Source: Lachnospiraceae bacterium
Lineage (GTDB): Bacteria > Bacillota > Clostridia > Lachnospirales > Lachnospiraceae
Assembly (NCBI GenBank): GCA_017620255.1
Contig: JAFZQU010000006.1
Location: 1 to 64,000, forward strand
Length of the DNA: 64,000 bases
Direction: 5' to 3'
Under the pieces are notes generated by a model that ran no database searches, was not told the DNA's origin, and worked only from the letters and a program-made list of their open reading frames with translations. Numbering within the stretch: position 1 is the stretch's first letter; every line of letters begins with the position of its first letter. Of this stretch, positions 28,683 through 59,600 are shown piece by piece. The translations under genes and the position numbers were made by a program.

Positions 28683-28711
28683 ATTGTACCACTTTACGGG
28701 CGTATTTTCCA
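28683..28711 (-). promoter_or_regulatory. Promoter of the STAS-NRPS gene
   Basis: TGGAAA (28706-28711 on the complement), 17 bases and TACAAT (28683-28688) lie 35 bases before the ATG. Box matches are 4 of 6 and 5 of 6. Confidence 0.6.
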
Positions 28712-34783: not shown

Positions 34784-34823
34784 ATCCCATCCCTCTCTCT
34801 CATTTCACGGGTAACAGTACGGG

Positions 34824-36866: not shown

Positions 36867-36910
36867 TCTTCATCCTCCCATAGTTCAAAACTGTGTCCTG
36901 CAAACAGACC

Positions 36911-41910: not shown

Positions 41911-42810
41911 CTATGATCTTGCCTTAAGATATTCCCGCAATTCCTGCATTCTGTCATGCATGTCATGATAGCCGAGCCAGTACAGATCGCCCAGCTTATC
42001 CATGTCGCCCTCAAACCGCGACACCGTCACTTCTTCAGACGGCGCCATCAGAAAGATCTTCCCCGCCGCCTCGTCGGCCAGCAGTTCTTCCGTCACGGTG
42101 TTAAAATCAGCCTCCGCCTTCTCCATGCTCTCCACGAAGTTCGGATAGTTTCTATAGAGCCGTCTCGCTGTCCTGAGTTTTCCGGATTCCCTCCTGTATT
42201 CGCGCTCTCTCGTCTTTACGACCATGATGGCTGCATCGCCCTGCTGCTTTGCCCAGTCATACGGGATATGCACGGAACAGCCGCCATCCAGATACGGTAC
42301 ACCGCCGATCACAACCGGTCGTGAGATGTAAGGTACGGTCGCGGATGCACGCACCGCACGAAAGAAGTTACAGTTGACTTTTTCGAAGTATTCCGTTTCC
42401 CCGGTCAGCATGTTGGTCGCACCGACCGCCAACCGCCGCTCCGTGGTCTTCAATCTCTTCTTATCCAGCGGATACTCCTTCAAGATCTCATGAAACAGGT
42501 AGGAAAAGCCCGTGATCCCGTGGTCGCGCCCGAAGGCCTTGTATCCGCAGTATTCCGGATCATGCCGGTATGTCAGATCGATCCTTGCGCTCCAGCCGAT
42601 CTGCCCTGATACATAGCCGATCCCCGAAAGCGCTCCGGCCGAGATCCCGACCGTTTTGCGGAAATTGATGTTCTCCTCCATCAGCGCGTCCAGCACGCCC
42701 AGCGTATACAGTCCTTTCCATGCGCCGCCCTCCAATACCAGGCAGCCTTCCGTAATGCTCTCATCCGCTCTGCCATCCGGCAGTTTATCGATGTCTTTGT
42801 ATGTCTTCAT
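41911..42810 (-). CDS. Patatin-family phospholipase, YjjU-like
   Basis: This 299-residue serine lipid hydrolase has the patatin motifs: oxyanion loop GGAWKG (about 28-33), nucleophile elbow GISAGA (Ser about 57) and catalytic Asp in YLDGGC. Length and the C-terminal KTREREYRRES stretch fit the YjjU-type family with a DUF6363-like tail. It probably acts on membrane lipids or acyl esters in the cytoplasm. It is followed by a strong terminator and lies 156 bases after the first TIR gene. No CD-NTase or cap gene is adjacent, so a CBASS effector role is not supported. Confidence 0.88.
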   Translation of the reverse strand: MKTYKDIDKLPDGRADESITEGCLVLEGGAWKGLYTLGVLDALMEENINFRKTVGISAGALSGIGYVSGQIGWSARIDLTYRHDPEYCGYKAFGRDHGITGFSYLFHEILKEYPLDKKRLKTTERRLAVGATNMLTGETEYFEKVNCNFFRAVRASATVPYISRPVVIGGVPYLDGGCSVHIPYDWAKQQGDAAIMVVKTREREYRRESGKLRTARRLYRNYPNFVESMEKAEADFNTVTEELLADEAAGKIFLMAPSEEVTVSRFEGDMDKLGDLYWLGYHDMHDRMQELREYLKARS

Positions 42811-42966: not shown

Positions 42967-45279
42967 TTAAAGTTCCAAAGCCATCCACAGCGCTGGGCGT
43001 ACCGCTCGCCTGCCCTGTTTATTATCAGTGCCTATTACGTCAATGGAACCGTTAACACCGATATAGGAATTCTTTGATATACCGTTTCCGGGAGACCGTA
43101 GCCACCACATGCAGGTACCTCTGCCGTCTATAGAATTAACATTACTTGCTACTACCCCCTGCGCTATGGCGTAATCTGTCGGGGCACATTTCCGCTCTTC
43201 ATCCGAAGCGAAATACTCATCAGCCTCTGTGATGCTAAGAAGAAAAACCTTGTCTGTTGTATCATTCCCGGGCAATGTGTAATGATTTTCCCGAATAGTT
43301 TCTGCAACAATATTGGTGCTGAGTATATTCTTTTGCTCTTCAGAACTAAATGCTGCGCTTAAGAACTCTTCGTTGAGCCACCCGCGAAGATCACTTTTTT
43401 CCCATGTTCGTTCCCAAGTTGACCAAGACTCACTCATCTTTAGATCATCAAGAGCATATTTGCTGACAATCAACACTTTGTCTTTATCCTTATCAAGTAC
43501 GATCCACTCAATATCTTCCTTTCCATTAGAGGTATTATTGTCTTGTTCATATGCGCCAAAGAAAAGAGTTTTTCCAACAGGACAGATGCTTCTCCATGCG
43601 TCGGATTCTTCAATCTTTTTTCGCTTGCTTGCGCTATCTTTGTAATCCAGTCCATCAAGTAAAAAATAAGCCCCTTTATAATCCTCAGTTTCGATCAGCG
43701 CATCCGCTTTTTCATATTTGATCGAATCAAGCAATTCGCTGTTGTCAATTCTTTCCAAGAGCGTGTTTGCCAGATCATACTCTCCGGAATCTATCAGCGC
43801 CATTGCTTTTTCGCATTTCAGTGTATCAGTCACTTCACTATCGCCGATTTCTTCCATGAGTGCATATGCTGCTTCATAATCTCCGGAATCCAGCAGTACC
43901 CTCGCCTTGTTCAGATTCTGCCAAGGAACAATAACTGTTTTTAGTACAAACAAAACAACAATACAAGCAATGATGATCGGTAATCCGATTAAGACGATTT
44001 TTTTACGATTCTTTTTCGCTTTTTCTGCCGTGTTGCTTCTTTCCTCTGCCAGACGTTCATTGATATGATCAATATATCCCGTGAGCATATCGGCAGTCGA
44101 TTTATCACCGAAACGTACAGCTTTCTGATAGTTATTACTGTTATCAAACGGCTTTTTACGGTTCTTGAGATCTTCCTGTCGGCGAACACGGAGTTCCGCC
44201 ATCAGTTTTCCGAGATATGCCTGTGCGTTTTCCGGATCCTGATCAAGTATCTTTTCACAATAAGCATCTGCTTCCTTCCAGTTGCTGTCATCAAGAAACA
44301 TAAACGCACGTTTCAGGAGAGGCGCAACACTTGCATTCCCTTCGACAACAGCGGTTTCCTTTGCAACCTGGTTCTGTTCTTCAACTTTTACTATTTTCTT
44401 AATACCGCGGATCAGATCCGGTATAAACCCAAGTTTAGACATATCCAATGCCTGAAGATGTGAAAACTCTTCCGGCAGATCATACGGGTCCATATCACGG
44501 TAAGCGGGAATGAGAACCTTTTTACCACCACTTTGTTTAACCAGGGAAAGGTATCGTCTCCATTCGTTCTTGACCCAGACAGCATTGAAGTACTCCGGTT
44601 TTGTTCCGAGGACAACCATGACTTTTGCACTGTTCAAAGCAGCAAAAATGTATGGTTCGTATGCTGTGCCAAGCTTGTCCTCCAGCGTGATCCGTGAAAA
44701 GAACACTTTGAAACCTTCATTAGTTAATTGGTGATAAAGGTCATTGGCCAAAACAGAATCCTGTGTACGCCTGCCGTCCTGGTCTGTTTCCTTATAGCAG
44801 ATGAAAATGTCAAATGGTTCTTCTTTCTGCGATATGGAAAGGATGCCCTTCTGAATCTCATTAATGGCGTTTGCTTCCGCCTCATATATAGCTCTTTGAT
44901 AATCGTCCGCATAATGCACTGCAGATTTGTAATTATCATCATCAAATATCGATGTAAACTGAGCGCAGTTGACTGTCGGTACGCGCTTGCGTGTCGCCGG
45001 ATCTTCAACATACTCAATACCGTAACGGCAAAGAACAAGCGACCAGTATGCTTCGGCATCTGTAGTATCTTCATTCAGCACTTGCTCGTAGATGTCAGCC
45101 GCCTTATCATACTCATTATTCCGTCGGAAATGGTTCGCACGATCATAAAGATTTGCTCGCCGCTCATCATCGAGACGCGGTAGCGTTTGCTTCGTCCCAC
45201 AACTGTCGCAAACGCCTACAGTATCACCAGGATTGAATTCAATTGTACCTCCGCACATTTTGCATTTGAAAATGAACAT
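42967..45279 (-). CDS. Zinc-ribbon-TIR-TM protein with DUF6273 ectodomain (1)
   Basis: This 770-residue protein begins with a zinc ribbon (CKMCGG...CDSCGTKQ, 6-30), a helical repeat region (about 40-150) and a TIR domain (about 154-300) starting FDIFICYKETD. The TIR domain keeps Glu239 in VWVKNEW, the position expected for the catalytic Glu of NAD-cleaving TIR domains. A TPR-like stretch (about 320-370), KKNRKK and one membrane helix (about 432-452) follow. Outside are TPR-like units (LLDSGDYEAAYALM and relatives) and a C-terminal DUF6273 domain (about 580-770, MWWLRSPG, then AVRPALW). No signal peptide; N-in topology by the positive-inside rule. The layout is receptor-like. Confidence 0.88.
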   Translation of the reverse strand: MFIFKCKMCGGTIEFNPGDTVGVCDSCGTKQTLPRLDDERRANLYDRANHFRRNNEYDKAADIYEQVLNEDTTDAEAYWSLVLCRYGIEYVEDPATRKRVPTVNCAQFTSIFDDDNYKSAVHYADDYQRAIYEAEANAINEIQKGILSISQKEEPFDIFICYKETDQDGRRTQDSVLANDLYHQLTNEGFKVFFSRITLEDKLGTAYEPYIFAALNSAKVMVVLGTKPEYFNAVWVKNEWRRYLSLVKQSGGKKVLIPAYRDMDPYDLPEEFSHLQALDMSKLGFIPDLIRGIKKIVKVEEQNQVAKETAVVEGNASVAPLLKRAFMFLDDSNWKEADAYCEKILDQDPENAQAYLGKLMAELRVRRQEDLKNRKKPFDNSNNYQKAVRFGDKSTADMLTGYIDHINERLAEERSNTAEKAKKNRKKIVLIGLPIIIACIVVLFVLKTVIVPWQNLNKARVLLDSGDYEAAYALMEEIGDSEVTDTLKCEKAMALIDSGEYDLANTLLERIDNSELLDSIKYEKADALIETEDYKGAYFLLDGLDYKDSASKRKKIEESDAWRSICPVGKTLFFGAYEQDNNTSNGKEDIEWIVLDKDKDKVLIVSKYALDDLKMSESWSTWERTWEKSDLRGWLNEEFLSAAFSSEEQKNILSTNIVAETIRENHYTLPGNDTTDKVFLLSITEADEYFASDEERKCAPTDYAIAQGVVASNVNSIDGRGTCMWWLRSPGNGISKNSYIGVNGSIDVIGTDNKQGRRAVRPALWMALEL

Positions 45280-45340
45280 AAACTAAACCCTTTTTCCTTT
45301 TCAACACGTATTGCAAATTGGTTCTATTTTGCTCTCATTC

Positions 45341-47665
45341 TTATTGCTTGTATAACAGATATGAACTCTTATCTTTGTAGCAATAAACTTCCATCTGTCT
45401 TTTGTTTATTATCGTAAACTTAAACACGTCTTTTCGATCAACGGCATTCTCAGTGTGCATAATTCTAGCTCCATCTTTGCCATACAAATAATAAACCCCT
45501 TCGGTGCTAATCGCATAATACGAATTAGGCAGGTCAACATATGGTATATTGTAAGTCGTACTGCCATCTTTTTTATATTCAAAATATTTTTTTCCATCTG
45601 ATGTTTTCCATATGCCCGGCATCCAATCATTAAAGTTACACCAAGCAATAACGCTTGCCATTTTGTTTGTTTTTGCTTTATCCAGAATCACATTGATATC
45701 ATTTCTAGCATTCCATATATCACGATAAACTTGCACATCCTTATAGTTTGATTCACAAAGACTGAAAAAATCATCTGCCTGTCTCAACCTGAAATATTTA
45801 TCCACATCAGTTTTATTCTCCGCATCTAAAACGATGGAATAAGCATCGTTATACCATTTCTCTTGGTTGTCCTCTACAAACTGTTTAGTCAAATCCGCAT
45901 CTAATTCCATTAATTCTTGAAGAATATAGCGGCACCCTCTATTTGCCTTAATATTCTTATTCTTATAGGAGTTTTCAAACTCCTGCAATTTTTCTTTGTA
46001 TTCCAGTTGGCCGGAAATGTCCTCTGTGTCTTCAACTCCCGATGCAATCATTTCTTCTAATGTCTTCTTTACAGTATCGTAGTCTTCAATCTGGTCGAAA
46101 TCATTAGCTAAGATGTGGTACTCACACTGTAAAGCCATTTTGGAGGAATCTTTGTAGCTTTGATTTTTTTTATATATCTCTTCGGCTGTTTTGTAGTCTT
46201 CGCGTTGAAATGCAAGTCCCGCATCAATATAATCCACCAATTGAGGATCTATTTGGACTGTATCTCCAAGACTTGTGATTATATCCATCGCCGCCTGATA
46301 TTCACCGGAATCTATCAGTTCTTCCGCGTGCTTAACTTCTGCCTCGAGCCTTAGTCGCTCAGCACGCTGTTTCAAAAGGATACTGGATATTACCGCAATC
46401 ACGACTGCCACAACAATTGCGCCGGTAATAATTACATACCTTTTCTTTCGTTTGGAAACGCGTTTTTCTATCTCTTCCAAACAGTCCTTCAGCGCCGCCT
46501 TTTGTTCGGGCGATGCGTATTTTAAGATATTTTGATATGAATGACTCTTTTCGAATGATTTGTTTACAAGTTTTAAAGACTCCTGGTCCTTAACCTCCAT
46601 CTCAGCGCACAGCTTTAGTATATGAGTCTCTGCATCCTCCGGAATCTCATCTAAAACTATGTCACTATATATCATAGCGTTTTTATAGTCGCCGATATCC
46701 AAATAATCTCTGATTCTCTTTTTGTATGCGGCAATATTCAGTCCGACAGAATTTTCATTCTGTTTTGATTCCGCCGACATAATGATCTTCTTTATCCCGC
46801 GAACCAAATCCTGCATAAATCCCAGCTTACTCATATCCTGCGCCTGCAGATGGGCAAACTCTTCCGGAAGATCATATGGATCCATGTCTCGATAAGCCGG
46901 GATTAAAACCTTCTTCTCTCCGTTCTTAATAAGCGAAAGGAATCGGCTCCACTCATTTTTCACCCACACAGCCTGAAAGTACTCGGGACGTGTGCCGACA
47001 CAAACCATAACTTTAGCTGAATTAAGTGCAGCAAAGATATACGGCTCATATGCGCTTCCGAGTTTATCTTCAAGCGTAATACGAGAGAAGAATACTTTAT
47101 ATCCTTCTCTTGTGAGTTCCGTGTAGAGTTCCTGCGCGATTACACTGTCCTGTGTCCTTCGCCCGGCATTATCTGCTTCTTTATAGCAGATGAACACATC
47201 ATAAGGTGTTTCTTTGTTTGAGATTTCAAGGATATCACTCTGGATCGCATCGATGGTTTTGGCGGATTCTTCAAACACTTTCCTCTGCTCATCTGATGCA
47301 TACTGAATTGCTGACTGATAATCTTTATCTTCAAAGATAGATTGATACTGCGTTCTGTTTACTGTTGGAATTCTTTCATGCGTTTTTGTATCTTCAACAT
47401 ATTCGATCCCGTAACGGCACAAGACAATATCCCAGTAAATCTCCGCATCAGTGTTATCTTCCGCCAGGATCTGCTCATAGAGTGCCTGGGCTTTATCAAA
47501 CTCATTTATCCCTTGAAAATGAGCCGCACGGTCATAAAGATTTGCTTTTTTCTCACTTACAAGCTTTGGTAGTGCCTGTTTCGTTCCACAGTATAAACAG
47601 GTGCCTACACATTTATCCTGTCCGACTTCAATATCTCCACCACAAATTTTACACTTTAAAACCAT
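45341..47665 (-). CDS. Zinc-ribbon-TIR-TM protein with helical and beta ectodomain (2)
   Basis: This 774-residue protein has the same inside half as its neighbours: zinc ribbon (CKICGG...CLYCGTKQ), helical region, TIR domain with YDVFICYKEAD and the Glu in VWVKNEWSRF (about 238), TPR-like stretch and a membrane helix (about 408-430) after KRVSKRKKR. The outside half differs: helical repeat-like sequence (about 440-650) and a C-terminal domain with W-x-P-G-I-W-K-T-S-D-G that loosely recalls lipocalin-like folds. By eye its DNA is richer in A+T than the flanking genes. It lies 61 bases upstream of TIR gene 1. Confidence 0.86.
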   Translation of the reverse strand: MVLKCKICGGDIEVGQDKCVGTCLYCGTKQALPKLVSEKKANLYDRAAHFQGINEFDKAQALYEQILAEDNTDAEIYWDIVLCRYGIEYVEDTKTHERIPTVNRTQYQSIFEDKDYQSAIQYASDEQRKVFEESAKTIDAIQSDILEISNKETPYDVFICYKEADNAGRRTQDSVIAQELYTELTREGYKVFFSRITLEDKLGSAYEPYIFAALNSAKVMVCVGTRPEYFQAVWVKNEWSRFLSLIKNGEKKVLIPAYRDMDPYDLPEEFAHLQAQDMSKLGFMQDLVRGIKKIIMSAESKQNENSVGLNIAAYKKRIRDYLDIGDYKNAMIYSDIVLDEIPEDAETHILKLCAEMEVKDQESLKLVNKSFEKSHSYQNILKYASPEQKAALKDCLEEIEKRVSKRKKRYVIITGAIVVAVVIAVISSILLKQRAERLRLEAEVKHAEELIDSGEYQAAMDIITSLGDTVQIDPQLVDYIDAGLAFQREDYKTAEEIYKKNQSYKDSSKMALQCEYHILANDFDQIEDYDTVKKTLEEMIASGVEDTEDISGQLEYKEKLQEFENSYKNKNIKANRGCRYILQELMELDADLTKQFVEDNQEKWYNDAYSIVLDAENKTDVDKYFRLRQADDFFSLCESNYKDVQVYRDIWNARNDINVILDKAKTNKMASVIAWCNFNDWMPGIWKTSDGKKYFEYKKDGSTTYNIPYVDLPNSYYAISTEGVYYLYGKDGARIMHTENAVDRKDVFKFTIINKRQMEVYCYKDKSSYLLYKQ

Positions 47666-47770
47666 ATTTCTGTTCTCCGTTTCATGTTAGAACACACTAC
47701 ACCCGATTCAAAAACTTGATGCTCGAAAGCTCTGAGCCCGGTCATAAACACAACATAGGCATAGAAACAA

Positions 47771-49990
47771 TTACTGGCTTACATTTATCCACATTGCAGG
47801 GCGAACAGCACCTTTACCGCTATGAGTATATGCGCCAACTTCAATGCCACCGCCATGCCTACCCTGATCGATGGAACCGTTATCGATGACTCGAGTAGCA
47901 CTTCGCGACCAAATGCTAGGCGACCGCAACCACCACCAACAATTCCCATTTGCGGCTTTATAAGCACCTTGCGCATAACAGTATGCTGTACCTTGACACT
48001 GGCGATCAGTTTCTGTACTGAAATACTTTTCCACTTCCTCAATATTAAGAAGAAATACTTTATCCGTCGTAGTAATTTCAGATGAAGATCCATTTTCTGA
48101 ATAATCATCTACAGAAACCAAAGAACTAAGGATGCGTTCTTGCTCTTCTGGAACGAATGCCTCCTGTAAGAAATCCTCATTTAACCATTTGCGAAGGGAA
48201 CATGTTTCCCATGTGACACCACTAATTGACGTGTTGAATGGCTGGTAATCAAGCGCATATTTGCTAATAAGTAGAACCCTTTCATCGTCTCGGTCCAACA
48301 CCATCCACTCTATGTCTTCTTTCTCATTGCCGGAACTGCTATCCTGCTTATATGAACCCCAAAAAACATTGGATCCAACTTGCGCCTCTGAAAGAAGTAA
48401 CTCCTTTTCATACTGCGGTAATATTTTATCCAAAAGCTCCTTACTGTTTTGATAGTCCATTCCATCAAGAAGAATTTGAGCTCCGATATAATTGCCAGAC
48501 TCAATCAGTACTAACGCCCTATCGTATTTGCTCGATGCAATCAACTCGCTATTGCCAACTTCTTCCATGATCGCATATGCCGCTTCATAATCCCCGGAAT
48601 CCAACAGTTCCATTGCCTTGTTCAATTTTATCCTGGGAATAAGCATCGTTGTCAACACACCAAAAAGAGCAACACATACAATAATGATTGGCACGATTAT
48701 TACAATCATTCTTTTGCGCCTCTTTGCCGCTTTCTCTTTTGCTATACGTCTTTCCTCAGTCTGACGGCCCTTGATATAATCAATAAACCCGGAGAGTATA
48801 TCGGCCAATTCATCGTTACCAAAGCGTACTGCTTTCTTGTAGTTGTTGCTGTTATCAAATGGCTCTTTACAGTTTTTGAGGTCTTCCTGACGGTGAACAT
48901 GGAGTTCCGCCATCAGCTTCCCAAGGTAGGCCTGTGCATTCTCCGGTTCCTGATCGAGGACCTTTTCGCAATAAGCATCCGCTTCAGCCCAATTACCATC
49001 CTCAAGGAAGATGAATGCTCGTTTAAGAAGCGGCGCTGTATTCATGTTGCCATCGACTAAGACCGTTTCTTTTGCGGTCTGCCTCGGTCCATCCGCTTTC
49101 ACGATCTTTTTTATTCCACGGATGAGATCCAGCATAAACCCCAGTTTGGACATGTCCAGTGCTTGCAGGTGAGAGAATTCCTCAGGCAGATCATACGGGT
49201 CCATATCGCGATAAGCGGGAATAAGAACCTTTTTTCCACCACTCTGTTTCACAAGGGAAAGGTAACGGCTCCACTCGTTCCTGACCCAAACAGCATTGAA
49301 ATATTCCGGCTTTGTGCCAAGTACAACCATGACTTTTGCACTGTTTAAAGCGGCAAAAATGTAGGGTTCATAGGCAGTGCCGAGTTTGTCTTCCAGCGTG
49401 ATCCGGGAGAAAAACACCTTGAAACCTTCATTTGTCAATTGGTGATAAAGATCGTTTGCAAGAACGGAATCCTGTGTGCGTCTTCCGTCCTGGTCCGTTT
49501 CCTTATAGCAGATGAAAACATCAAACGGTTCTTCTTTCTGTGATATGGCAAGGATGCCCTTCTGGATCTCGTTTATGGTGCGCGCTTCTGTCTCATAGAC
49601 CGCACGCTGGGCACCGTCCGCATACTGTATGGCAGATTTGTAATTATCATCATCAAAGATTGAGGTGAACTGGGCGCGATTGACCGTTGGGACGTGCTTA
49701 TGTGTCGCAGGATCCACAACATACTCAATACCATAGCGGCAAAGAACGAGTGACCAGTATGCTTCCGCATCCGTAGTATCTTCATTCAGTATCTGCTCAT
49801 AGATACCCGCCGCTTTGTCATACTCATTATTTCTGCGAAAATGGTTCGCGCGATCGTACAGATTTGCACGGTGCTCGCCCTCAAGACGTGGTAATGTTTG
49901 CTTTGTCCCGCAAGAGTCGCAAACACCTACGGTTTCACCGGAGTTGAACTCGATCGTTCCTCCGCACATTTTACATTTGAAAATGGACAT
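47771..49990 (-). CDS. Zinc-ribbon-TIR-TM protein with DUF6273 ectodomain (3)
   Basis: This 739-residue protein is the closest paralogue of TIR protein 1. The zinc ribbon, helical region and TIR domain are nearly identical in sequence, including VWVRNEWSRY with the presumed catalytic Glu. A membrane helix (about 425-450) follows KRRKRM. Outside are TPR-like units and a DUF6273 domain with WWWLRSP and AVRPAMW. The segment between these two motifs is quite different from that of protein 1. I start at the ATG at 49990 (MSIFKCK), with AAGGA 9 bases upstream. Confidence 0.88.
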   Translation of the reverse strand: MSIFKCKMCGGTIEFNSGETVGVCDSCGTKQTLPRLEGEHRANLYDRANHFRRNNEYDKAAGIYEQILNEDTTDAEAYWSLVLCRYGIEYVVDPATHKHVPTVNRAQFTSIFDDDNYKSAIQYADGAQRAVYETEARTINEIQKGILAISQKEEPFDVFICYKETDQDGRRTQDSVLANDLYHQLTNEGFKVFFSRITLEDKLGTAYEPYIFAALNSAKVMVVLGTKPEYFNAVWVRNEWSRYLSLVKQSGGKKVLIPAYRDMDPYDLPEEFSHLQALDMSKLGFMLDLIRGIKKIVKADGPRQTAKETVLVDGNMNTAPLLKRAFIFLEDGNWAEADAYCEKVLDQEPENAQAYLGKLMAELHVHRQEDLKNCKEPFDNSNNYKKAVRFGNDELADILSGFIDYIKGRQTEERRIAKEKAAKRRKRMIVIIVPIIIVCVALFGVLTTMLIPRIKLNKAMELLDSGDYEAAYAIMEEVGNSELIASSKYDRALVLIESGNYIGAQILLDGMDYQNSKELLDKILPQYEKELLLSEAQVGSNVFWGSYKQDSSSGNEKEDIEWMVLDRDDERVLLISKYALDYQPFNTSISGVTWETCSLRKWLNEDFLQEAFVPEEQERILSSLVSVDDYSENGSSSEITTTDKVFLLNIEEVEKYFSTETDRQCQGTAYCYAQGAYKAANGNCWWWLRSPSIWSRSATRVIDNGSIDQGRHGGGIEVGAYTHSGKGAVRPAMWINVSQ

Positions 49991-50102
49991 CAAGCTAAAT
50001 CCTTTTCCCTTTTCGACTCTTTTTTATCACACAGGGCTAGTCGATGTTTTTGCTAAGTGCGTTGTATGCTGAAATACCATGTCGTTTAGCTATAATTGAT
50101 AG

Positions 50103-50693
50103 TCACTGAATCCGGTATTTCCTACGGATATTGTTGTGACGTTTAAATCTGTCAACATATTTGTCCAATTCATTTGCAATGTTCATGCCATCCATTGCAA
50201 CCTCTTCACCAACGGTTTCCACACTGCTTGGAACTTTGTTCGTTAATCCATGGACCATTCTGTTACGCGTTTCTTTCCACTCTTTGTATCTGTTCAGCAA
50301 CTGAATGAAATCTTCAATATCCTTGACCGTATTCTCCATCTGGTTATGAACATCGCTCAAATAGGGATTATTTGTGCGCTTGATTTTCGCCAAAGCCATA
50401 AGGATAGATATCTTTACATCCGCATTTCTTACCTGTATCTGATCCGTGGGTTTTTTCCCTAATAATTCAATGATATGAGGTCGTATCTTTCGAACCACAC
50501 GCAAGTTTTCCTGATCGCGACTAACCACGCCCGCGTAATGCAGCAATGCGATCAGCCGGTCTTCAATAATGTTGTAAACGATCATAAGCGCTTCAAGATA
50601 GAACTGATGCCTTTTGGCCAACTCAAATCTTTTCTTTAAATACGCATATGTTTTCTGCTTTTCTTTTGACGTCTTGTTCTGAACTAATTCCAT
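50103..50693 (-). CDS. HEPN-like protein between TIR genes
   Basis: This 196-residue, all-helical, soluble protein contains RNRMVH (about 141-146), which fits the R-x4-6-H motif of HEPN ribonucleases, and an N-terminal helix with Glu in LEALMIVYNIIEDRL, as seen in many HEPN folds. HEPN proteins cut RNA in toxin-antitoxin and defence settings; activity here is inference. It lies 12 bases after TIR gene 4 and about 110 bases before TIR gene 3, so it is part of the TIR cluster. No antitoxin (nucleotidyltransferase) partner is adjacent. Confidence 0.65.
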   Translation of the reverse strand: MELVQNKTSKEKQKTYAYLKKRFELAKRHQFYLEALMIVYNIIEDRLIALLHYAGVVSRDQENLRVVRKIRPHIIELLGKKPTDQIQVRNADVKISILMALAKIKRTNNPYLSDVHNQMENTVKDIEDFIQLLNRYKEWKETRNRMVHGLTNKVPSSVETVGEEVAMDGMNIANELDKYVDRFKRHNNIRRKYRIQ

Positions 50694-50705
50694 TTCCTTT
50701 GTGCC

Positions 50706-52883
50706 TTATTCATATCTCTTGATCAGCGCCATGTTCTTCTGCTCTATATCACTCAGCCGGACTACCAAACTGAACTCATCCGGATCATATATGCCCCGAT
50801 ACCATGATTTTGAGTCAAAGTATGCCTGCAGTTCGGCATCCTTAAACCTTCTGCCGTGTCTTGCGAAGATTTCGTTACGGGCGATGCGCAGCTCCTCACT
50901 GCTCAGTCCCATCACATCCGCATCCGTAAGATATCTGTCCGAACTGTCGGGAATAATATATTCACTGACCTGAGTGCTTTCCATCCCATAGGTGTTGTTC
51001 CCGGCATTGGCAGACTGGAATGTGAAGGAGTTCTGGGAATAACCTGTGTATTCTACCAGTCCATATAATTCGACTTCATCGTTATACATATAGTGCGGAT
51101 TGCGCAGATCTAATGTCACATTGATCTCAAATAACCGGTTACCGCCTACGGATGAGGCCAACGCTCTGGATTCGTTAACACCTATCAAATCATCCCAGCT
51201 GGCGACTATGCCGCAGGATCGTAACGTTTTCATAAAGTTTCTGTCTTCTTCCAGGTCGGACCCCATCATTTCCGCATTTCCTTTGATCACAAATTCCTGC
51301 CCGTCATACGCGATCCCGGCAAAATTCAATGCGATCCCGTCCGCGGATATGTCGTAAAACTGTACTGAAAACACACCGATCGTCTTCTTGCCGTCCACAT
51401 CATAGGTAAAAGCGATCGTATTGCCACCGTCACCGTCCAATGTCCTCACGCGATACTCGTACTGATCGGCTTGTCCCACTCCATCCTTGTACTCATACAT
51501 TGTAAAATAGATCCATTGCCCCTGCTCAATAGACGGGATCAGTAATTCTTCTTCCCCGTCTCCGTCAAAATCATCCACGAAGCAGTCTATATTTCCAATG
51601 GGTACATTGTTCAGGTTTTTATATCCGTTTGACACATATTGTGAGAACTCGCCCGTGAGTCCGTTCACATAGACCTGTTTTTTCGCATAATCCAGCAGTT
51701 CTTGTTTGTGTGATACCGGCTGCGGTGTTTCGGGCTCCTCCGGCTCCGGGGTGTCCACAACAATATCTTCCACCGGAGCAGGCTCCGGTTCGCTCTCCTC
51801 TACCGCGGCTACGGTTTGTTCGGCATCTGCGTACTGCTTTCTTTGCATCCCGGACTTTATTGCCAAAGCAGCAACAACGACCAGCAGTGCTAGTATCACA
51901 CCTCCGATGGCGATCGCGATCCATTTCAGACGGCTTGTGCTACCATTATTGGATGATGACAGACGAATTCCCTTTTTGTTCTGCCTGGCCCATTCGACCT
52001 GTTTCTTTACGATGTGTTTCAGATCCTGGAATGCACCCAGTTTTGAAATGTCTATCCCCTGGAATTTCTGCAGGTCAGCCGGCAGATCCGACGGCGAGAT
52101 CTCCTTGTATACAGGGATGATGCTCTTTTCCTTGTCATCCTGCATAAAGGACAGAAATCTGGACCACTCGTTTTTCACCCATACGGATTCCGCATACTCT
52201 TTCTTTGTTGTGACCAACAGAAGGATCCTGGCCGATTTCAGCGCCGCATAGATATAGGGCTCGTATTCGGTTCCGAGCTTATCTTCCAGCGTGATCTTTG
52301 AGAAGAAGACCCGCAGTCCCATCTGCTCAAGCGAATCAAACAGTTCGTGCGCGATCGCACTGTCTTCGGTAGGATTTCCGGACTCATCAGAGTACTTATA
52401 ACAGATAAACACATCATACGGCTTCTCTTTGGACGAAATAGACCGGATATGATTTTGAAGACGCTCTATCTCATCTGCTTCCTTGATATACAATTCCTTT
52501 TGTTCTTCAGAAGCATACTTGATCGCAAGGTCATAATTGACCATCTTTTTAGGCGATATGTTTTTTGTTCTGTGACATGTGGGAACGCGCTTCTTTTCTT
52601 TTGGATCCTCTACATACTCGATCCCGTACTCTGACAGCAGCATTCCCCAGTAGGCTTCAGCCTCCTGACCATCTTCTGTCGTGATCGACTCATAAGCGGA
52701 ATATGATCTGTCAAATTCACAATTGTTCAGATACTGAATGGCCCGGTTATATAACCGAGCCTTTTTATCTGAATCTATTTTCGGGATGGTCATTGTGGTC
52801 CCGCAATATTGACATGTCCCTAATGTTTTATCCGGACTGACATCTATGTCGCCGCCGCAGATTTTACACTTTAAGATCGCCAT
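50706..52883 (-). CDS. Zinc-ribbon-TIR-TM protein with calcium-loop and YARHG ectodomain (4)
   Basis: This 725-residue protein has a zinc ribbon (CKICGG...CQYCGTT), a helical region, a TIR domain (YDVFICYKYSD; Glu in VWVKNEWSRF) and a membrane helix (about 322-345), shorter inside than its paralogues. Outside comes a Glu/Pro linker (about 365-400), a domain with DDFDGDGEEEL (FG-GAP/EF-hand-like calcium loop, about 445), beta-rich sequence, and a C-terminal YARHG domain (ELRIARNEIFARHGRRF, then YFDSKSWY). It is the most diverged of the four TIR proteins. It lies 17 bases after the LRR-type membrane protein gene. Confidence 0.87.
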   Translation of the reverse strand: MAILKCKICGGDIDVSPDKTLGTCQYCGTTMTIPKIDSDKKARLYNRAIQYLNNCEFDRSYSAYESITTEDGQEAEAYWGMLLSEYGIEYVEDPKEKKRVPTCHRTKNISPKKMVNYDLAIKYASEEQKELYIKEADEIERLQNHIRSISSKEKPYDVFICYKYSDESGNPTEDSAIAHELFDSLEQMGLRVFFSKITLEDKLGTEYEPYIYAALKSARILLLVTTKKEYAESVWVKNEWSRFLSFMQDDKEKSIIPVYKEISPSDLPADLQKFQGIDISKLGAFQDLKHIVKKQVEWARQNKKGIRLSSSNNGSTSRLKWIAIAIGGVILALLVVVAALAIKSGMQRKQYADAEQTVAAVEESEPEPAPVEDIVVDTPEPEEPETPQPVSHKQELLDYAKKQVYVNGLTGEFSQYVSNGYKNLNNVPIGNIDCFVDDFDGDGEEELLIPSIEQGQWIYFTMYEYKDGVGQADQYEYRVRTLDGDGGNTIAFTYDVDGKKTIGVFSVQFYDISADGIALNFAGIAYDGQEFVIKGNAEMMGSDLEEDRNFMKTLRSCGIVASWDDLIGVNESRALASSVGGNRLFEINVTLDLRNPHYMYNDEVELYGLVEYTGYSQNSFTFQSANAGNNTYGMESTQVSEYIIPDSSDRYLTDADVMGLSSEELRIARNEIFARHGRRFKDAELQAYFDSKSWYRGIYDPDEFSLVVRLSDIEQKNMALIKRYE

Positions 52884-52900: not shown

Positions 52901-54190
52901 TTATCTGTTTTTCATCAGGCTGATGATATCTTCACATTTTGCGATGATCTCATCTTTGTTGCCTTCTGCAATAATACCCTTTAGCAGTGTGATTTTCTCT
53001 GCTACCAGATTTTCCACTTCGGTGTCTTTACTCTTGGCCTGTGTGAACCGTATTTCGTCCATCACTCTGGAAACAGCTTTTTTTGTTTCCGGATCACTGA
53101 TCCCATCCGACAGGTTTTTCACCATCGATTGCAGGTTCCTCACAGATTCCGTCTGTGTTCTGACCTCTTCCATGACCTTATAGGACTGTTTGCGTCCTCT
53201 GTTGAGCAGGGAAATGATCAGAATATATGCGAGTAACAGTGCAAGACTGATCAGGATCGCCCAGAAGGGAGAAATGGGAACCAGGTAGATGTATCTGAAG
53301 CATAAATAGATCTGCGCAGCCAGATACAGGATCGAAAAGATCACCTGCGGGCCGCTGAGCATGTATTCATTCAGGTTTCTTGCATATCTCGGCAGAATAA
53401 CATTTACGGTCGCGATCACGATCACAAATGCCAGCACTGTAAAGATCAGTTCGATCACAAGTACCGGTGAGAAGATCCACGTGCTGACTTTCCCGTTTAT
53501 TTCCGTTACGGTATCCGGGAAGATGACCATGTCATAGTGCCCCAGAAGATTGAAGGATACTGTCGTTACCGGCTTACCGTCAATATAGGACGGGATCGCA
53601 ATGATCTTATCGTCTCCCTTGTACCCTACCAGTTCGATCGACTTTCCGTTGTCGTTATAGTAGAACGGAATGTCCGCGCAAAACGGATTATAGTAGGTCG
53701 AATCATAGGTTGTTTCCAGTTTCCAGTCCTCGGAATCCTGATTTCGTTTGTAAAAAGGTGCATCTTTGTCACAGTAAAGGATAACCTTTTTTGTGGGTTC
53801 TGCCTTGATCTCCACGATGGTTTCCGGAAGATACAGACTCTCGATATCAAGATTGTCAAAGAAGTGTTCCCCGATCGTCGTTACCATGGTTTCTCCAATG
53901 AACGCCGGTATCATCAGGTCTTCGCTTTTGCCCGCATAACTCTCAATGGATATGGTTCCTTTATCCGTCGTGTTGTAGTCAAAGTTCTCGTAGCGGAAAT
54001 CCAGGAATTTCTTTTCCGAATCAGGCACATTGATCTGGTGAAGCATATTCTCTTGGGCAAACCGCTCCGCGTAACTGCCCGGAGCCGTTGCAATCGGGAT
54101 GGATCTGTAGAAAACATTCCCCACGATCAACAATCCTATGTACACAATGGCTAAAATGATCGTTACTACATTAAAGGCCGCTCGTTTCAT
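52901..54190 (-). CDS. Membrane protein with BspA-type LRR ectodomain
   Basis: This 429-residue protein has an N-terminal helix (about 8-28), an outside region with leucine-rich-repeat type 5 signatures (IPAFIGETMVTTIG, SLYLPETIVEI, IPSYIDGKPVTTV, VIFPDTVTEI), then three helices (about 245-345) and a cytoplasmic coiled-coil tail (about 350-429). LRR_5 modules often bind surfaces or proteins. It lies 3 bases after the SPFH gene and 17 bases before TIR gene 4, and so sits at the head of the TIR cluster. The function is unknown. Confidence 0.78.
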   Translation of the reverse strand: MKRAAFNVVTIILAIVYIGLLIVGNVFYRSIPIATAPGSYAERFAQENMLHQINVPDSEKKFLDFRYENFDYNTTDKGTISIESYAGKSEDLMIPAFIGETMVTTIGEHFFDNLDIESLYLPETIVEIKAEPTKKVILYCDKDAPFYKRNQDSEDWKLETTYDSTYYNPFCADIPFYYNDNGKSIELVGYKGDDKIIAIPSYIDGKPVTTVSFNLLGHYDMVIFPDTVTEINGKVSTWIFSPVLVIELIFTVLAFVIVIATVNVILPRYARNLNEYMLSGPQVIFSILYLAAQIYLCFRYIYLVPISPFWAILISLALLLAYILIISLLNRGRKQSYKVMEEVRTQTESVRNLQSMVKNLSDGISDPETKKAVSRVMDEIRFTQAKSKDTEVENLVAEKITLLKGIIAEGNKDEIIAKCEDIISLMKNR

Positions 54191-54193: not shown

Positions 54194-55357
54194 TTATCCC
54201 CTCCTTGTCCCGCATTTCGGGCAGAAGTTTGCGTCTGCAGACAACTCCGCCCCACAGGAAGCACATAACACTTTTGTTTCCACTTTTGTTCCGCATTTTT
54301 CACAGAATAATGCGCCTGCGCTGAGAACGGCGCCGCAGGATGCACATGTTTTTTTGCCGGTCTCTTCCTGTCCGGCTGCGCTCTGCATAGCCGATGTTGC
54401 CATTGTTCCGACCTGCTGCCCCAGGGTGCCGCCGATACCGGTCATCATGCCCATTCCGATGCCGACATTGTTCATCTGTGCTGCGGCATCATTCCCGGCA
54501 ACTTCCGAGGCAACATCAAAGCCTCTCTCCTGTTGATATGTGTAGCCTTCCAACTGACGTTTCTTTGCAATGGCTTCAGCCTCGATCACCGTCTGCTGGG
54601 CCTTTGTCTGTTCATTTATGATCGAAACTTTCTGATTCAGTTCTGCTTCTGCGACATCCGTGACTTTTCTGAAGTGCAGATCCTTGAATTTCTTAAAGTT
54701 GGGATCCTCATCCGGTTTGACAACCGTGGTTATGAGAAATGTCTTCAGATCGATCCCGTAATCCGTAAAATCATCGGCAAGCATGGGCTTGATCGCATCC
54801 GAGATCACGGTCAGGTGCTGATCAATGTTGAAGATGCTGATCTTCTTTTCAATGATGACCGAAGGAATGATCGATTTGATCCTGTTCATCAGAAAGGCCC
54901 GGAAGTAAGACGTCAATTCAGCAAGTGTCAGATTCTTGGTTGTCCCCACAACCTTAACAAGCAGTTTCGTGGAGTTGGAGACTGCCAGACTCATCTGGCC
55001 GCATGCACCGATCTCCAAAGGGAAATTGTATTCCGGATCCAGGTAGGATATCTTGCTGTCAGTACCCCATTTGATCGACATGTGTTCTGTGAGATTCACA
55101 AAGTAGATCTCGCAGTGGAATGCACTCTTCCCGCCTGTCGTAATCTTTTGCAACTGCTTGATGACCGGCAGGTTTTCCGTCTCGAGCACATGCTTACCCG
55201 GCCCGAAAACTTCCAGTACCTCTCCGTTCAGCAGGAAAACCGCCTCCTGTGATTCATGGACGATCAACTGTGAGCCGACATTGAAATCCGTTGTCGGATG
55301 TTTCCAAACAAAAGTGCTGTTATCACCCTCGTACTTTATTACACTTGTTATAGCCAT
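54194..55357 (-). CDS. SPFH/YdjI-like protein with two C-terminal zinc ribbons
   Basis: This 387-residue protein has an SPFH (band 7) domain (about 20-260) of the YdjI type, often labelled virion core protein in databases, a helical stretch and a Met/Gly-rich linker (about 285-325), and two zinc ribbons (CASCGAVL...CEKCG and CASCGAEL...CPKCG, about 340-385). YdjI-like proteins assemble at membrane domains. It is the first gene of the minus-strand TIR cluster. GGGAGG precedes the ATG. Confidence 0.87.
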   Translation of the reverse strand: MAITSVIKYEGDNSTFVWKHPTTDFNVGSQLIVHESQEAVFLLNGEVLEVFGPGKHVLETENLPVIKQLQKITTGGKSAFHCEIYFVNLTEHMSIKWGTDSKISYLDPEYNFPLEIGACGQMSLAVSNSTKLLVKVVGTTKNLTLAELTSYFRAFLMNRIKSIIPSVIIEKKISIFNIDQHLTVISDAIKPMLADDFTDYGIDLKTFLITTVVKPDEDPNFKKFKDLHFRKVTDVAEAELNQKVSIINEQTKAQQTVIEAEAIAKKRQLEGYTYQQERGFDVASEVAGNDAAAQMNNVGIGMGMMTGIGGTLGQQVGTMATSAMQSAAGQEETGKKTCASCGAVLSAGALFCEKCGTKVETKVLCASCGAELSADANFCPKCGTRRG

Positions 55358-55499: not shown

Positions 55500-55583
55500 G
55501 CGGAGGTGTCGGAATTGGCAGACGAGCAAGACTAAGGATCTTGTGGGAGCAATCTCGTGTGGGTTCAAGTCCCATTCTCCGCA
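55500..55583 (+). tRNA. tRNA-Leu, anticodon AAG
   Basis: This 84-base type II tRNA has an acceptor stem GCGGAGG paired with TCTCCGC, discriminator A at 55583, anticodon stem CAAGA/TCTTG with loop CTAAGGA giving anticodon AAG (reads CUU/CUC), a long variable arm, and GGTTCAAGTCC in the T arm. CCA is not encoded. A34 is normally edited to inosine by TadA. Confidence 0.95.
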
Positions 55584-56659: not shown

Positions 56660-59600
56660 TCAGTTAGAAAGATTTCTCCACCACCAAATGAAGTTCTTGG
56701 GGCCGATGGTAAAGGTGATCGTCTTCCTGCCGCAGTAATCGCCGGTTCCGACCACGTCCACCGTAGCTTTGCCTTTGGCGGTATGGTTCTTATAAGTACT
56801 TACGTCAAATTCAAAGGTCGGTGCGGGCTGGTTCTTAACAGCCTTCCATATGATATCGCCTGCTGACAGGAACACTTCCTTTCCGGTATATTTCTTCGGA
56901 TCAAGGCTTGCCGTCATTTTGCTGATGTCATACTTTCCGATCCGGTATTTACCTGTTATCGGACCGCTGTAATTTCCCGCTCCGGTCACCTCGATGCGGA
57001 TCTCATCGCCCGGGGCCAGTTCAGCTGTATCCGCTAACGGTGTGGTTTCATCACCCTTATAGAATTTAAAGACTTTTTGATAATCGGTTCCGGCTTTCAA
57101 GGTCTTCCCGTCTTTATCCACGAGCGTGACTTTTTTCGTCTTCCACTTGTTTGTTGCCGTCTGGGAGACCACATCAGCGGCTATGACTTTCACACCCGCG
57201 GTTTCCATATCCGTTCCCACGATCTTAAAGGTGGCTGATGCATCCGTTCCCTTAAAGTTTCCTTTTCCGGTCACTTTGACAGTGGGGAGTTTCCCCGTAT
57301 TGTTGCCTTCGTTCAACGCCGTGTTGTTGACATAGGAAAGCGTGTAGTCTGTTTTTTCGACACAGGGGATCCACTTCTCGCCTACTTTGAATTCCACAGT
57401 TACTTCCGGCTTTGTGCCTGCCTTCGCATACGGATATTTATTTTCTGCAGGCGGATTCTTCAGTGTGACCCTGAACTTCTCAGCCGCTTTCGGATCTTTT
57501 GCGATATCAAACGGCGCGATCTTAAAGGTCTTGCTGAATGTGCCGGTGCAGCCGTTGATACCGGTCAGTATCATCGTGGCCGTTCCGGCTTTGATATTGT
57601 TCTTATAATCTACGATGCAGTCGACATTCCTCTTTTCAACAGGATCTGTGATGGCTTCATATTCTTCCTGCGTTTTGACAATGAGCTGCGTGATACCTGC
57701 ACCGGATTTAAAGTAGGGCTTTAGCTCCGCTTCGTCCTGCTCCAGTTTTGATCCGCTGTATGTCATGGTTCCCTGGAACGTGCCGCCCAATGTCACTTTA
57801 TTCATCGGGATGCCCGTGATCTTGAAGGATACGGTGCGGGAACCAACATATCCGCTTGCTTCTACGCCCGTGATCTTTACATAGTATGTGCCTATTTCGG
57901 AGGGTTCATCAACGGCCTGTGTACAAGCGGCATTTTTATAAGTTGCAACCGTAAAGTGTGTATCCTGAGTAAGCGGTCCGCCATCCTTTACGCTCAGCGG
58001 GATCAGCACGGGATTACCGTCGTTATACGGCTGATCCGGGATCTTGTCGATCTTGAGTTTGCTGACAAGTACCTTTTCTTTTGCATAAATCTCAAAAGGC
58101 ACATTTACGCATCCCCGGTAGTTTTCTTTTCCTTCGATTACTGCATAGTATTTCCCGGGTTCTTTGGGTTCAACCAACGGACCGGCTTCATCCGTATTCG
58201 TCCTTTCATGATACTCTATCGTGAAGTCTTTATTTTTAACGAGTTTCTTTTTACCATAAGTGATCGTCGGGACCGGTTTGTAGGGCTTGTTATTATGATT
58301 GGCATCGGCAATTTCAGAAACAGTTATGTCGGCATCACCAATATCCTTCTCTGTGATCTTAAAGGTTTCTGTTTCCATACCGCTATAATTGCCCTTACCC
58401 CGAAGCGTTATAAGAGCCGTCGTACCGACATTAGTATTATTACTGTATGAAATCGTGTAATCTTTGTTTTCTACTAATAGCGTATTATAACAAAAGACCT
58501 TTACAACCGGCTTAATTGCAAACCCTGTATATGTATATCCGTTTTCATCGATGCCTGTAATATAAAAACCGTTGGGAATGTCTTTTTCAGTTCCATCCTC
58601 ATTGATTTCCTTAACTTTATTGTCATTCTCATCTAAAACATATAATTTGACCTCATCGGCTTCAGCATCGCTTCCCACATCACTATTCATCCTTTTTCCG
58701 GTCTGCAGAATGACACTCTCAAAGGTTTTCTCAGCATAATCCGTTACCTGTCCGGAATTATCGTATGAATAATCCAGAATCCCATATGTCATTGTTCCAT
58801 TATCGGTTCCGACAAGATCAAGACAATATTGGCTGTCTGCAGGAAGTACTATACATTTTTCATCTCCTACAGCGAACATCAGAACATTCTCATCTTTCAC
58901 TTCTCCAACAGTATTATTGATTATGCTTCCAATGACGTTCCCCTGCCGATCAACTAGTTTTACATCAACAGGGCACCTGATGATGGCTATGCGTCTTTGT
59001 GTCGCCAATACATATCTGCTTTCAGATAACAGCCACGCCATGTATGTTTCCGTCATATGATGTTCATTAGAGTCTTGATTGACGACGACAGAAAAATTTT
59101 TACCCGTCAGATCTTTGTAGCACTGAGCAAACACGCTGTCAACCGTAGTAAACTCACGATCTATACCATGTCTTAATGTAACCAGGTATTGCGGACAATT
59201 TGGTACCCAATCATCTTCATTTATATAGTTCTTAATAAACCACTTATTTCCACTGGTTTCTCTTATCGAAAACGGACTGGCAAATGTATAGCATGTGATG
59301 TGTTTACCATCAATGCCGTACGAATCATGCAGCGCAGCGGCCAGATTATTTGCATCTGCCCCTCCCAGACTATGTCCGGTCACGAAAAACCTGTTTTTGT
59401 TATCCCGAATATCTATGTCACGGTCAGTAAGAAAGTTAACAACATCATAGTTTAGTATATTTGCAGCATCTGCTTCAAAGGGGATAAATATGTCTGTAAT
59501 CCCGTCCTTTACTAAATCCTGGGTTCCTCTTATGACTATCGTGATAAGATTATAGACCTGTCCTTCTTTTTCGTATTGCCTTAACGCTATGGTATGTGCA

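What the first reader, a model, noticed from the sequence alone, without database searches (positions are those of the whole stretch)
42967..52883. Four receptor-like zinc-ribbon-TIR-TM proteins in one cluster
Seen: four genes encode the same inside half (zinc ribbon, helical region, TIR with a conserved VW[VM]xNE-type Glu, TPR-like stretch) joined through one membrane helix to outside halves that differ in domain type. Known: bacterial TIR domains often cleave NAD+ in phage defence (Thoeris, TIR-STING, TIR-SAVED), usually as soluble proteins activated by nucleotides or partners. Inference: here outside ligand binding may control an inside NADase, a bacterial counterpart of Toll-like layout. 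I know of no described system with this architecture and copy number.
Basis: partly seen in the sequence, partly recalled or inferred. Interest (0 to 1): 0.78.

Follow-up and report, generated by a model that had tools for sequence, protein, structure and literature searches.

The report
Bacterial Toll-like receptor array on flotillin-like scaffold
Gut bacteria carry a cluster of membrane proteins that share one inner TIR immune domain but wear freely exchanged outer halves, encoded beside a flotillin-like protein and often a candidate effector gene, which looks like a bacterial array of immune receptors.

Summary
Four minus-strand genes (42967-52883) share a zinc ribbon, helical and TIR half, each with one membrane helix and an outer half (DUF6273 in two, one unassigned, one with YARHG). 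The plan recurs: in 79 fetched loci S lies on the TIR gene's strand in 52 of the 52 that show S; M and the TIR family co-occur across 393 genomes of the order (25 share both, p 9e-24). Outer type does not follow the inner-half tree (38 changes, shuffled mean 39.5): a constant TIR half exchanges sensors. 25 of 48 operons hold extra genes, some of defence-type families (HEPN, TIR, FRG, DUF2971, DUF4365, weakly AbiH/SIR2). The TIR Glu is invariant in 90 of 90 aligned. Against a strict receptor reading: 18 of 91 homologues lack the helix, several with the same C-terminal domains, and 4 of 100 end just after it. Most likely an SPFH-scaffolded, membrane-anchored TIR defence system with interchangeable sensors. 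Activity, ligand and defence are untested.

The parts
54194..55357 (-). S: SPFH (Band_7_1) protein, 387 aa, with C-terminal zinc ribbons and no membrane helix; first gene of the probable operon (P0006)
   Evidence: Pfam PF13421 E 1.8e-41, Zn_Ribbon_1 E 4.1e-14, two stretches; no hydrophobic segment; homologue on the same strand as the TIR gene in 52 of 52 loci that show one, before a TIR gene in 48
52901..54190 (-). M: membrane partner, 429 aa, about four hydrophobic segments and a C-terminal soluble tail (P0005); relatives are mostly about 233 aa without the large insert after the first segment
   Evidence: hydrophobicity; phmmer relatives in 26 of 79 fetched loci, family profile in 50 of 78; aligned family A5; 37 of 393 genomes of the order
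50706..52883 (-). TIR protein 4 (P0004, 725 aa): zinc ribbon, helical region, TIR, membrane helix at 322-340, outer half with acidic/Pro linker, unassigned region and YARHG domain
50103..50693 (-). Cargo gene (P0007, 196 aa): HEPN-like by an R-x4-H motif (RNRMVH) read by eye; no profile match over cut-off
   Evidence: ORF; three Pfam matches, all below cut-off and none HEPN; found only in this genome among 295 at E 1e-6
47771..49990 (-). TIR protein 3 (P0003): zinc ribbon, TPR-like, TIR, TPR-like, membrane helix, TPR-like, DUF6273
   Evidence: inside half 90% identical to P0001, rest 53% of 428 aligned
45341..47665 (-). TIR protein 2 (P0002): same inside half, one membrane helix, outer half without Pfam domain
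42967..45279 (-). TIR protein 1 (P0001): zinc ribbon (C6, C9, C24, C27), TPR-like, TIR with E239, TPR-like, helix 428-446, TPR-like, DUF6273
   Evidence: AlphaFold2 model mean pLDDT 87.8
41911..42810 (-). Patatin-like phospholipase (P0009), next gene on the same strand; composition host-like, membership in the system doubtful
   Evidence: Pfam Patatin E 2e-18, DUF6363 E 2.4e-16; GC3 0.69 against 0.40-0.59 in the operon; no phmmer relative in the 79 loci at E 1e-5

Best explanation
An SPFH-scaffolded, membrane-anchored TIR defence system with interchangeable sensors. S (SPFH with zinc ribbons) and M (membrane protein) form a platform at the cytoplasmic membrane. Several zinc-ribbon-TIR proteins sit on it, each with the same cytosolic signalling half and its own C-terminal sensor half, usually outside the cell. 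When a sensor half meets its ligand (most likely a phage particle, a phage product or damaged envelope), the TIR halves cluster and act on NAD+, either depleting it or making a nucleotide signal that arms the cargo effector of the operon (HEPN, AbiH/SIR2-like, FRG, second TIR and others), and the cell stops supporting the phage. Shown here by sequence: the gene set, its linkage, the conserved TIR glutamate, the free exchange of sensor halves, the patchy distribution. Inferred: topology of each protein, complex formation, NAD chemistry, ligand, defence.
For: Linkage: S on the TIR gene's strand in 52 of 52 loci that show it, before it in 48; M and the TIR family co-occur in 25 of 393 genomes against 12 with M only and 8 with TIR only, Fisher p 9e-24 (lists compared by hand, test). 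Modularity: outer-domain type needs 38 changes on the inner-half tree, shuffled mean 39.5; 9 of 36 same-locus pairs are 90-98% identical in residues 1-300 and 27-61% over the rest. TIR: W235 and E239 in 90 of 90 aligned, in line with AbTIR, L6 and SNC1. Constraint: window pair P0001/P0003 dN 0.023 and dS about 1.5 in residues 150-300, dN 0.37 in 400-600 and 0.53 beyond. Outside location: positive-inside 68 of 73; the genome's two other DUF6273 proteins begin with apparent signal peptides. Cargo: HEPN, DUF2971, TIR, FRG, DUF4365 matches and weaker AbiH/SIR2 ones. Patchy: TIR family in 2 of 37 genomes of the genus and 33 of 393 of the order; operon GC 0.44 against 0.519 in the 42.8 kb beside it.
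Against: 18 of 91 relatives have no membrane helix; on the tree set 20 of 100 lack it, among them 7 with DUF6273, 2 LRR and 1 RCC1, and 4 of 100 end within 40 residues of the helix, so an outside sensor is not essential. 14 of 49 loci with more than 4.5 kb upstream of the first TIR gene show no S, some with little DNA downstream, and 8 of 33 TIR genomes have no M hit, though in two of these S stands directly before the TIR gene (L159, L160). Short zinc-ribbon-TIR proteins without S or M beside them exist (L161, L162). The cargo's PADLOC matches (48 families in 36 genes) are only partly above a control of 36 genes upstream of S (14 families), and the cargo group also matched housekeeping families. 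AbiH and two of three SIR2_2 matches are below Pfam's cut-off. P0007 has no profile match. Low GC also continues beyond the operon to about 63 kb. No match in phage or plasmid records. No structural comparison of the TIR pocket could be run. Toll-type TIR domains share a similar motif without NADase activity (recalled), and P0001's best PDB sequence match is a Toll-like receptor chain.
Confidence: 0.5

Rival explanations
1. Envelope-stress module of the YdjGHI/Psp kind. S and M survey membrane integrity, and the zinc-ribbon proteins, with or without TIR, are adaptors. The TIR is a protein-interaction scaffold and the outer halves sense cell-wall state or abiotic stress, not phages.
For: B. [quoted passage not shown] YdjG has a zinc ribbon and is a transmembrane protein (passage of PMC9239133). 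12 of 37 genomes with M lack the TIR family; in 6 of 9 such contexts that I read, S and M stand near other zinc-ribbon genes without TIR (L148, L149, L151, L153, L154, L156; zinc ribbons read by eye).
Against: Invariant TIR glutamate; cargo genes of defence-type families; patchy presence within one genus; low GC.
Confidence: 0.2
2. Cytosolic sensing with a membrane anchor. The helix only parks the protein at the SPFH platform; the C-terminal domains or the TPR parts read intracellular phage proteins, as ThsB or DSR2 do.
For: 18 of 91 without a helix; helix-less DUF6273, LRR and RCC1 forms and 4 tail-anchored forms; P0004's charge bias does not favour N-in.
Against: 73 of 91 have a helix and 68 of these have more K/R on the N-terminal side; apparent signal peptides on the two other DUF6273 proteins of the genome (window 56660-62485; contig C17).
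Confidence: 0.17
3. Receptors for neighbours or host ligands (kin recognition, gut mucus or diet glycans) that regulate behaviour, not immunity.
For: DUF6273 resembles a C-type lectin fold in phage target proteins (passages of PMC10743442); many of the loci come from gut and rumen Clostridia by their record titles.
Against: Linked HEPN, TIR, FRG and AbiH/SIR2-like genes fit killing or growth arrest better than behaviour.
Confidence: 0.08

Closest known systems
Thoeris (ThsB TIR sensors plus ThsA effector)
   Same: One or multiple TIR proteins that detect phage, beside an effector gene; SIR2-type effectors occur there and SIR2-like genes occur in some related operons here (passages of PMC11204291)
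   Different: ThsB and ThcB4 profiles far below family level; membrane helix and large C-terminal halves; SPFH and M platform; no ThsA match among the ten window proteins scanned
B. subtilis pspA-ydjGHI (SPFH-linked phage-shock module)
   Same: SPFH protein with zinc finger, membrane partners, a zinc-ribbon membrane subunit (passages of PMC8581546 and PMC9239133)
   Different: TIR on the zinc-ribbon subunit, multiple copies, variable outer halves, cargo genes; homology of M to YdjH was not tested
Animal Toll-like receptors
   Same: Ligand-binding half outside, one helix, TIR inside; 2 of the 4 LRR members among 100 have the helix, so LRR-TM-TIR exists in this family
   Different: Reverse polarity (TIR before the helix), predicted enzyme rather than scaffold, extra zinc-ribbon and TPR parts, SPFH platform; no LRR in the window's four TIR proteins
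DUF6273 / C-type-lectin target proteins of diversity-generating retroelements
   Same: The outer domain of P0001 and P0003 (passages of PMC10743442 and PMC11792537)
   Different: No reverse transcriptase match in this genome and no template/variable repeat pair found by a simple scan without positive control; variety comes from domain exchange and duplication

Membership tests
Thoeris | ThsB-type TIR at family level | tested here: not met
   NCBIfam ThcB4 25-28 bits against a cut-off of 220; PADLOC ThsB only P0004, E 0.0076; Pfam ThsB_TIR absent at E 0.1 for P0001-P0004
Thoeris | ThsA effector beside the TIR gene | tested here: not met
   No ThsA match among ten window proteins; SIR2-like genes sit in some related operons instead
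TIR NADases | TIR domain with glutamate after a conserved Trp | tested here: met
   W235 and E239 in 90 of 90 aligned, three ORFs dropped before; in line with AbTIR, L6 and SNC1 (that this Glu is catalytic there is recalled)
TIR NADases | NAD+ cleavage | not testable with these tools
   needs enzyme assay
Toll-like receptors | LRR ectodomain, one helix, C-terminal TIR | tested here: not met
   TIR is before the helix; no LRR in the four window TIR proteins; LRR with helix in 2 of 100 relatives
Psp / YdjGHI | SPFH protein with zinc finger beside membrane partners | tested here: met
   Band_7_1 and zinc ribbons; S and M adjacent in the window and in most related operons
Psp / YdjGHI | PspA gene in the operon | not tested
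   no PspA search was made; no Pfam PspA match among the ten window proteins scanned
Psp / YdjGHI | M homologous to YdjH | not tested
   YdjH sequence was not fetched
DGR target proteins | Reverse transcriptase and template repeat | tested here: not met
   No RVT_1 match in the genome at E 0.001; no A-biased repeat pair found by a script without positive control

The most novel reading that the evidence does not exclude
A bacterial counterpart of a pattern-recognition receptor repertoire: tandem TIR receptors with one constant cytosolic half and freely swapped ectodomains (C-type-lectin-like DUF6273, LRR, RCC1, YARHG, InlB-type repeats), gathered on an SPFH platform and coupled to exchangeable effector genes, sensing phage or envelope attack from outside before DNA entry.
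Probability: 0.3. Interest if true: 0.92.

Novelty: new variant of a known kind. Interest (0 to 1): 0.77.

Why it matters
If right, bacteria have an extracellular-sensing TIR receptor family built and diversified like an innate receptor repertoire, which gives a concrete test of whether the Toll layout arose more than once. It also ties SPFH (flotillin-type) platforms to TIR signalling and to defence-type effectors, a link that my ten searches of an open-access library (listed under tried and rejected) did not turn up.

Tried and rejected
Diversity-generating retroelement acting on DUF6273: not supported for this genome (no reverse transcriptase match; no repeat pair in window or loci by a simple script that printed nothing and had no positive control; an RT-like fragment in L068 was noticed by eye only). 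Carriage on phages or plasmids: no match in either collection; 2 matches in viral contigs, one strong (L168). Integration at tRNA-Leu 55500-55583: no second exact copy of its 3' end on the contig. Simple Thoeris membership: rejected on scores. P0007 as a widespread HEPN: not found in 294 other genomes. Promoter and terminator scan: no more than chance. PDB profile search with the full-length alignment: only TPR matches. Literature: ten searches on TIR, SPFH, zinc ribbon, Toll-like, Thoeris III, DUF6273, YdjGHI and SIR2 showed no description of this system in titles, abstracts or listings; one search listed 10 of 42 papers. The one paper with TIR domain, SPFH, zinc ribbon and bacterial together (PMC7159879) was seen in 12 of 19 passages, none of them the SPFH one. 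Passages only were seen of PMC8581546, PMC9239133, PMC10743442, PMC11792537 and PMC11204291. The library is open access only.

Rows dropped: 15 of 108 TIR ORFs were cut by contig ends; of the 93 others, 3 (two L034 ORFs that look like pieces of one broken gene, and L037:3560-4618) were left out of the Pfam and residue counts, leaving 90. One of 79 loci (L061) gave no TIR ORF. Of 14 genes directly after the last TIR gene only two (L006, L068) were scanned singly, and 6 of 13 genes just before TIR genes in loci without S were not scanned. Two genes on the opposite strand between S and TIR (L040, L053) were left out of the cargo count. Of 12 genomes with M but no TIR, 10 stretches were fetched and 9 read; the output cut the tenth and one TIR-only stretch (L157, L158).
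Full report
What is there. The four reported ORFs exist at 42967-45279, 45341-47665, 47771-49993 and 50706-52883, all on the minus strand. Pfam finds TIR_2 in each (E 5e-13, 2.2e-13, 9.1e-14 and 2e-15), TPR repeats over cut-off in P0001 and P0003, DUF6273 at the C-terminus of P0001 and P0003, and YARHG at the C-terminus of P0004. One strong hydrophobic segment lies at 428-446, 411-429, 429-447 and 322-340. The AlphaFold2 model of P0001 (mean pLDDT 87.8, pTM 0.47, 58 aligned sequences) shows short strands in the zinc-ribbon part, helices, an alternating alpha/beta stretch at the TIR, helical repeats, one long helix through the membrane segment (393-464), more helices and a mixed domain with strands at the end. 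Its segments under pLDDT 50 are 198-204, inside the TIR, and 302-315, behind it.

Directly upstream on the same strand lie M (52901-54190, membrane protein) and S (54194-55357, SPFH Band_7_1, E 1.8e-41, with zinc ribbons). A 196-residue gene with an R-x4-H motif (50103-50693) lies between the fourth and third TIR genes; it has no profile match over cut-off, so 'HEPN-like' is my reading by eye. Gaps between successive genes from S to P0001 are 3, 17, 12, 112 (to the ATG at 49990), 105 and 61 bases by the coordinates. The patatin gene further on has a host-like composition (GC3 0.69) and is probably outside the system.

Relatives. In 78 of these the TIR gene was recovered as an ORF (L061 was not). 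S was found in 52, in all 52 on the TIR gene's strand, before a TIR gene in 48 and only after it in 4; M was found in 50, both in 47. Of 49 loci with more than 4.5 kb upstream of the first TIR gene, 35 have S and 14 do not; several of the 14 have little DNA downstream. Across an even draw of 393 genomes of the order the TIR family occurs in 33 and M in 37; comparing the two lists by hand, 25 have both, 12 M only, 8 TIR only (Fisher p 9e-24). In two of the TIR-only genomes S stands directly before the TIR gene without M (L159, L160); L161-L165 showed no S in the stretch read; L158 was cut from the output. Within the genus the TIR family is in 2 of 37 genomes and S in 3 of 37, including those 2. 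In a draw of 398 genomes of the phylum two match at E 1e-50, the window's own and one of its family. The operon is GC 0.44 beside 0.519 in the preceding 42.8 kb; the low GC goes on past the operon to about 63 kb. GC3 falls from 0.59 (S), 0.58 (M) and 0.55 (P0004) to 0.40-0.47 in P0007 and TIR genes 3, 2 and 1: the distal genes look like later acquisitions.

M without TIR. Of the 12 genomes with M but no TIR family I fetched 10 stretches and could read 9 (L157 was cut from the output). In 6 (L148, L149, L151, L153, L154, L156) a zinc-ribbon gene by eye stands near S and M, in some with coiled-coil-like genes; in 3 (L150, L152, L155) I saw none. So S-M looks like a general platform and the TIR proteins like one class of zinc-ribbon subunit. 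B. subtilis has a comparable set: YdjI (SPFH, zinc-finger motif, no membrane anchor) needs the membrane proteins YdjG and YdjH for its place, and YdjH interacts with YdjI and PspA (passages of PMC8581546); YdjG carries a zinc ribbon (passage of PMC9239133). I did not test homology of M to YdjH.

Outer halves. Of 90 distinct complete proteins scanned (4 from the window, 86 from loci), DUF6273 is in 51, RCC1 repeats in 11, BspA-type LRR in 4, InlB-type repeats in 2, and YARHG, MORN and RHS in 1 each; TIR_2 in 89 (P0001 was scanned in both and is counted once; 25 of 29 families were shown). The small tail-anchored class alone is somewhat clustered (3 changes, as low in 19 of 500). The labels came from a local DUF6273 profile and motif counts, and 'other' (30) is a mixed class. 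Copies within one locus can be nearly identical in residues 1-300 and then diverge abruptly: 9 of 36 same-locus pairs are 90-98% identical inside (L053 98, L064 97, L166 93, 93 and 95, L167 95, L015 and L021 92, window P0001/P0003 90) with 27-61% in the rest; the other 27 pairs are 47-88% inside. At the DNA level some pairs (L053, L064, L015 residues 150-300) also have low synonymous divergence inside, which fits recent exchange or conversion; the window pair has dS about 1.4-1.5 inside, so its likeness reflects purifying selection (dN 0.083 in 1-150 and 0.023 in 150-300, against 0.37 in 400-600 and 0.53 beyond). One MAG (CANQGK01) holds both an S-linked copy (L027) and a copy without S in its stretch (L038) with inside halves 96-98% identical in DNA.

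Topology. Of 91 proteins over 450 residues, 73 have a helix by hydrophobicity (threshold 1.9) and 18 do not. Of the 73, 68 have more K/R in the 12 residues before the helix than after, 2 equal and 3 fewer, P0004 among the last. In this genome DUF6273 occurs in two further proteins, a 1941-residue one at 56660-62485 and a 1017-residue one on contig C17; both begin, by eye, with signal peptides. This favours an outside place for DUF6273. Against it, 20 of the 100 tree proteins lack the helix, among them 7 with DUF6273, 2 LRR and 1 RCC1, and four members end within 40 residues of the helix. Both facts together suggest that anchoring at the platform is the basic role and that outside sensing is common but not universal.

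TIR chemistry. W235 and E239 are invariant in 90 of 90 aligned proteins, D157, F159 and Y162 in 89, and each of the four zinc-ribbon cysteines in 89. phmmer of the P0004 TIR against PDB sequences gives plant L6 (E 0.0045), SNC1 (0.0064), a chain named 'Molecular chaperone Tir' (0.017) and AbTIR (0.035), with the glutamate aligned in the printed alignments. That the aligned residue is catalytic in these proteins is recalled. P0001 matched a Toll-like receptor chain best (E 1.4e-4), so sequence alone does not separate enzyme from scaffold. The fold search never got machine time.

Cargo. Of 48 loci with S before TIR, 28 genes of at least 85 aa on the same strand lie between S and the last TIR gene besides M and TIR, in 25 loci by my count; one of them (L047:12712-12990) looks like a fragment of M. 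A group of 36 (P0007, these 28, and 7 of 13 genes just before TIR genes in loci without S) matched HEPN_RiboL-PSP in 3, HEPN pEK499_p136 in 3, DUF2971 in 3, and TIR, FRG and DUF4365 in 1 each; RCC1 in 2 and DUF6273 in 1 (sensor types); and housekeeping families (thiamin pyrophosphokinase, capsule synthesis, YlmH) in 1 each (25 of 45 families shown). Ten single scans gave: L021:8707-9981 AbiH 6.3e-6 and SIR2_2 0.0035, both below cut-off; L006:15853-16785, which follows the TIR genes, SIR2_2 2.5e-7 over cut-off; L068:12432-13775, also after, SIR2_2 0.0036 below cut-off; HEPN (L048), TIR (L059) and FRG (L074) over cut-off; L039 HEPN p136 just below; no match for L014, L058 and L009:2677-3621. PADLOC profiles: 48 families matched in the cargo group against 14 in 36 control genes upstream of S; distinct members were not counted and the control held some defence-like matches too, so this is suggestive only. 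In L166 and L167 TIR genes alternate with other genes, some SIR2-like or DUF2971-like by eye.

Mechanism, in steps. Platform of S and M at the membrane (inferred from linkage and the YdjGHI parallel). TIR proteins docked by zinc ribbon or TPR (inferred). Ligand binding by the outer half (inferred from modular exchange and the lectin-like class of DUF6273, passages of PMC10743442). TIR clustering and NAD+ use (inferred from the glutamate). Effector action through NAD+ loss or through the cargo gene (inferred). The Thoeris comparison (one effector gene, one or multiple TIR sensor genes; passages of PMC11204291) is the nearest working model, but family membership is not met.

Verdict. Rated a new variant of TIR-based bacterial immunity, pending function.

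Noticed in passing
window 32834-38281 (-): Three consecutive genes (649, 680, 456 aa) that read as zinc ribbon, Pro/Gln-rich linker, membrane helix and outer half, without TIR: the same zinc-ribbon-membrane plan close to the TIR cluster (only the 456-aa one was scanned).
   Followed up: partly
window 25256-28684 (-): A 1142-residue protein that reads by eye as an N-terminal STAS-like domain fused to an adenylation, carrier and condensation module; a SpoIIE-type phosphatase-like gene (10555-12618) and chemoreceptor-like genes lie in the same window.
   Followed up: no
window 56660-62485 (-): 1941-residue protein with an apparent signal peptide, three DUF6273 copies and a lipase-like GHSLGG motif, also low in GC, just beyond the tRNA-Leu at 55500-55583.
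   Followed up: partly
L180 1507-3879 (-) (genome contig C27): A fifth TIR protein of this genome (790 aa): TIR, a hydrophobic helix by eye and a large C-terminal half of another type; not in this family at E 1e-20.
   Followed up: no
L181 4393-4974 (-) (genome contig C20): A truncated SPFH gene similar to S (53% over 93 residues) beside integrase-like and transposase-like pieces, perhaps a remnant of a second copy of the system.
   Followed up: no
L059:9515-9967 (+): A 150-residue second TIR protein (TIR_2 E 2e-19) between M and the TIR receptor gene; probably the member of the cargo group that matched PADLOC PDC-S66 and ThsB profiles.
   Followed up: partly
L161 6778-7905, L162 6272-7408: Short zinc-ribbon-TIR proteins of 375-378 residues with no S or M in the stretch and no room for an outer half: possible ancestral or minimal form.
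   Followed up: no
L068 14379-14579: Short reverse-transcriptase-like fragment, seen by eye, near a DUF6273 TIR gene; no repeat pair found by script.
   Followed up: partly
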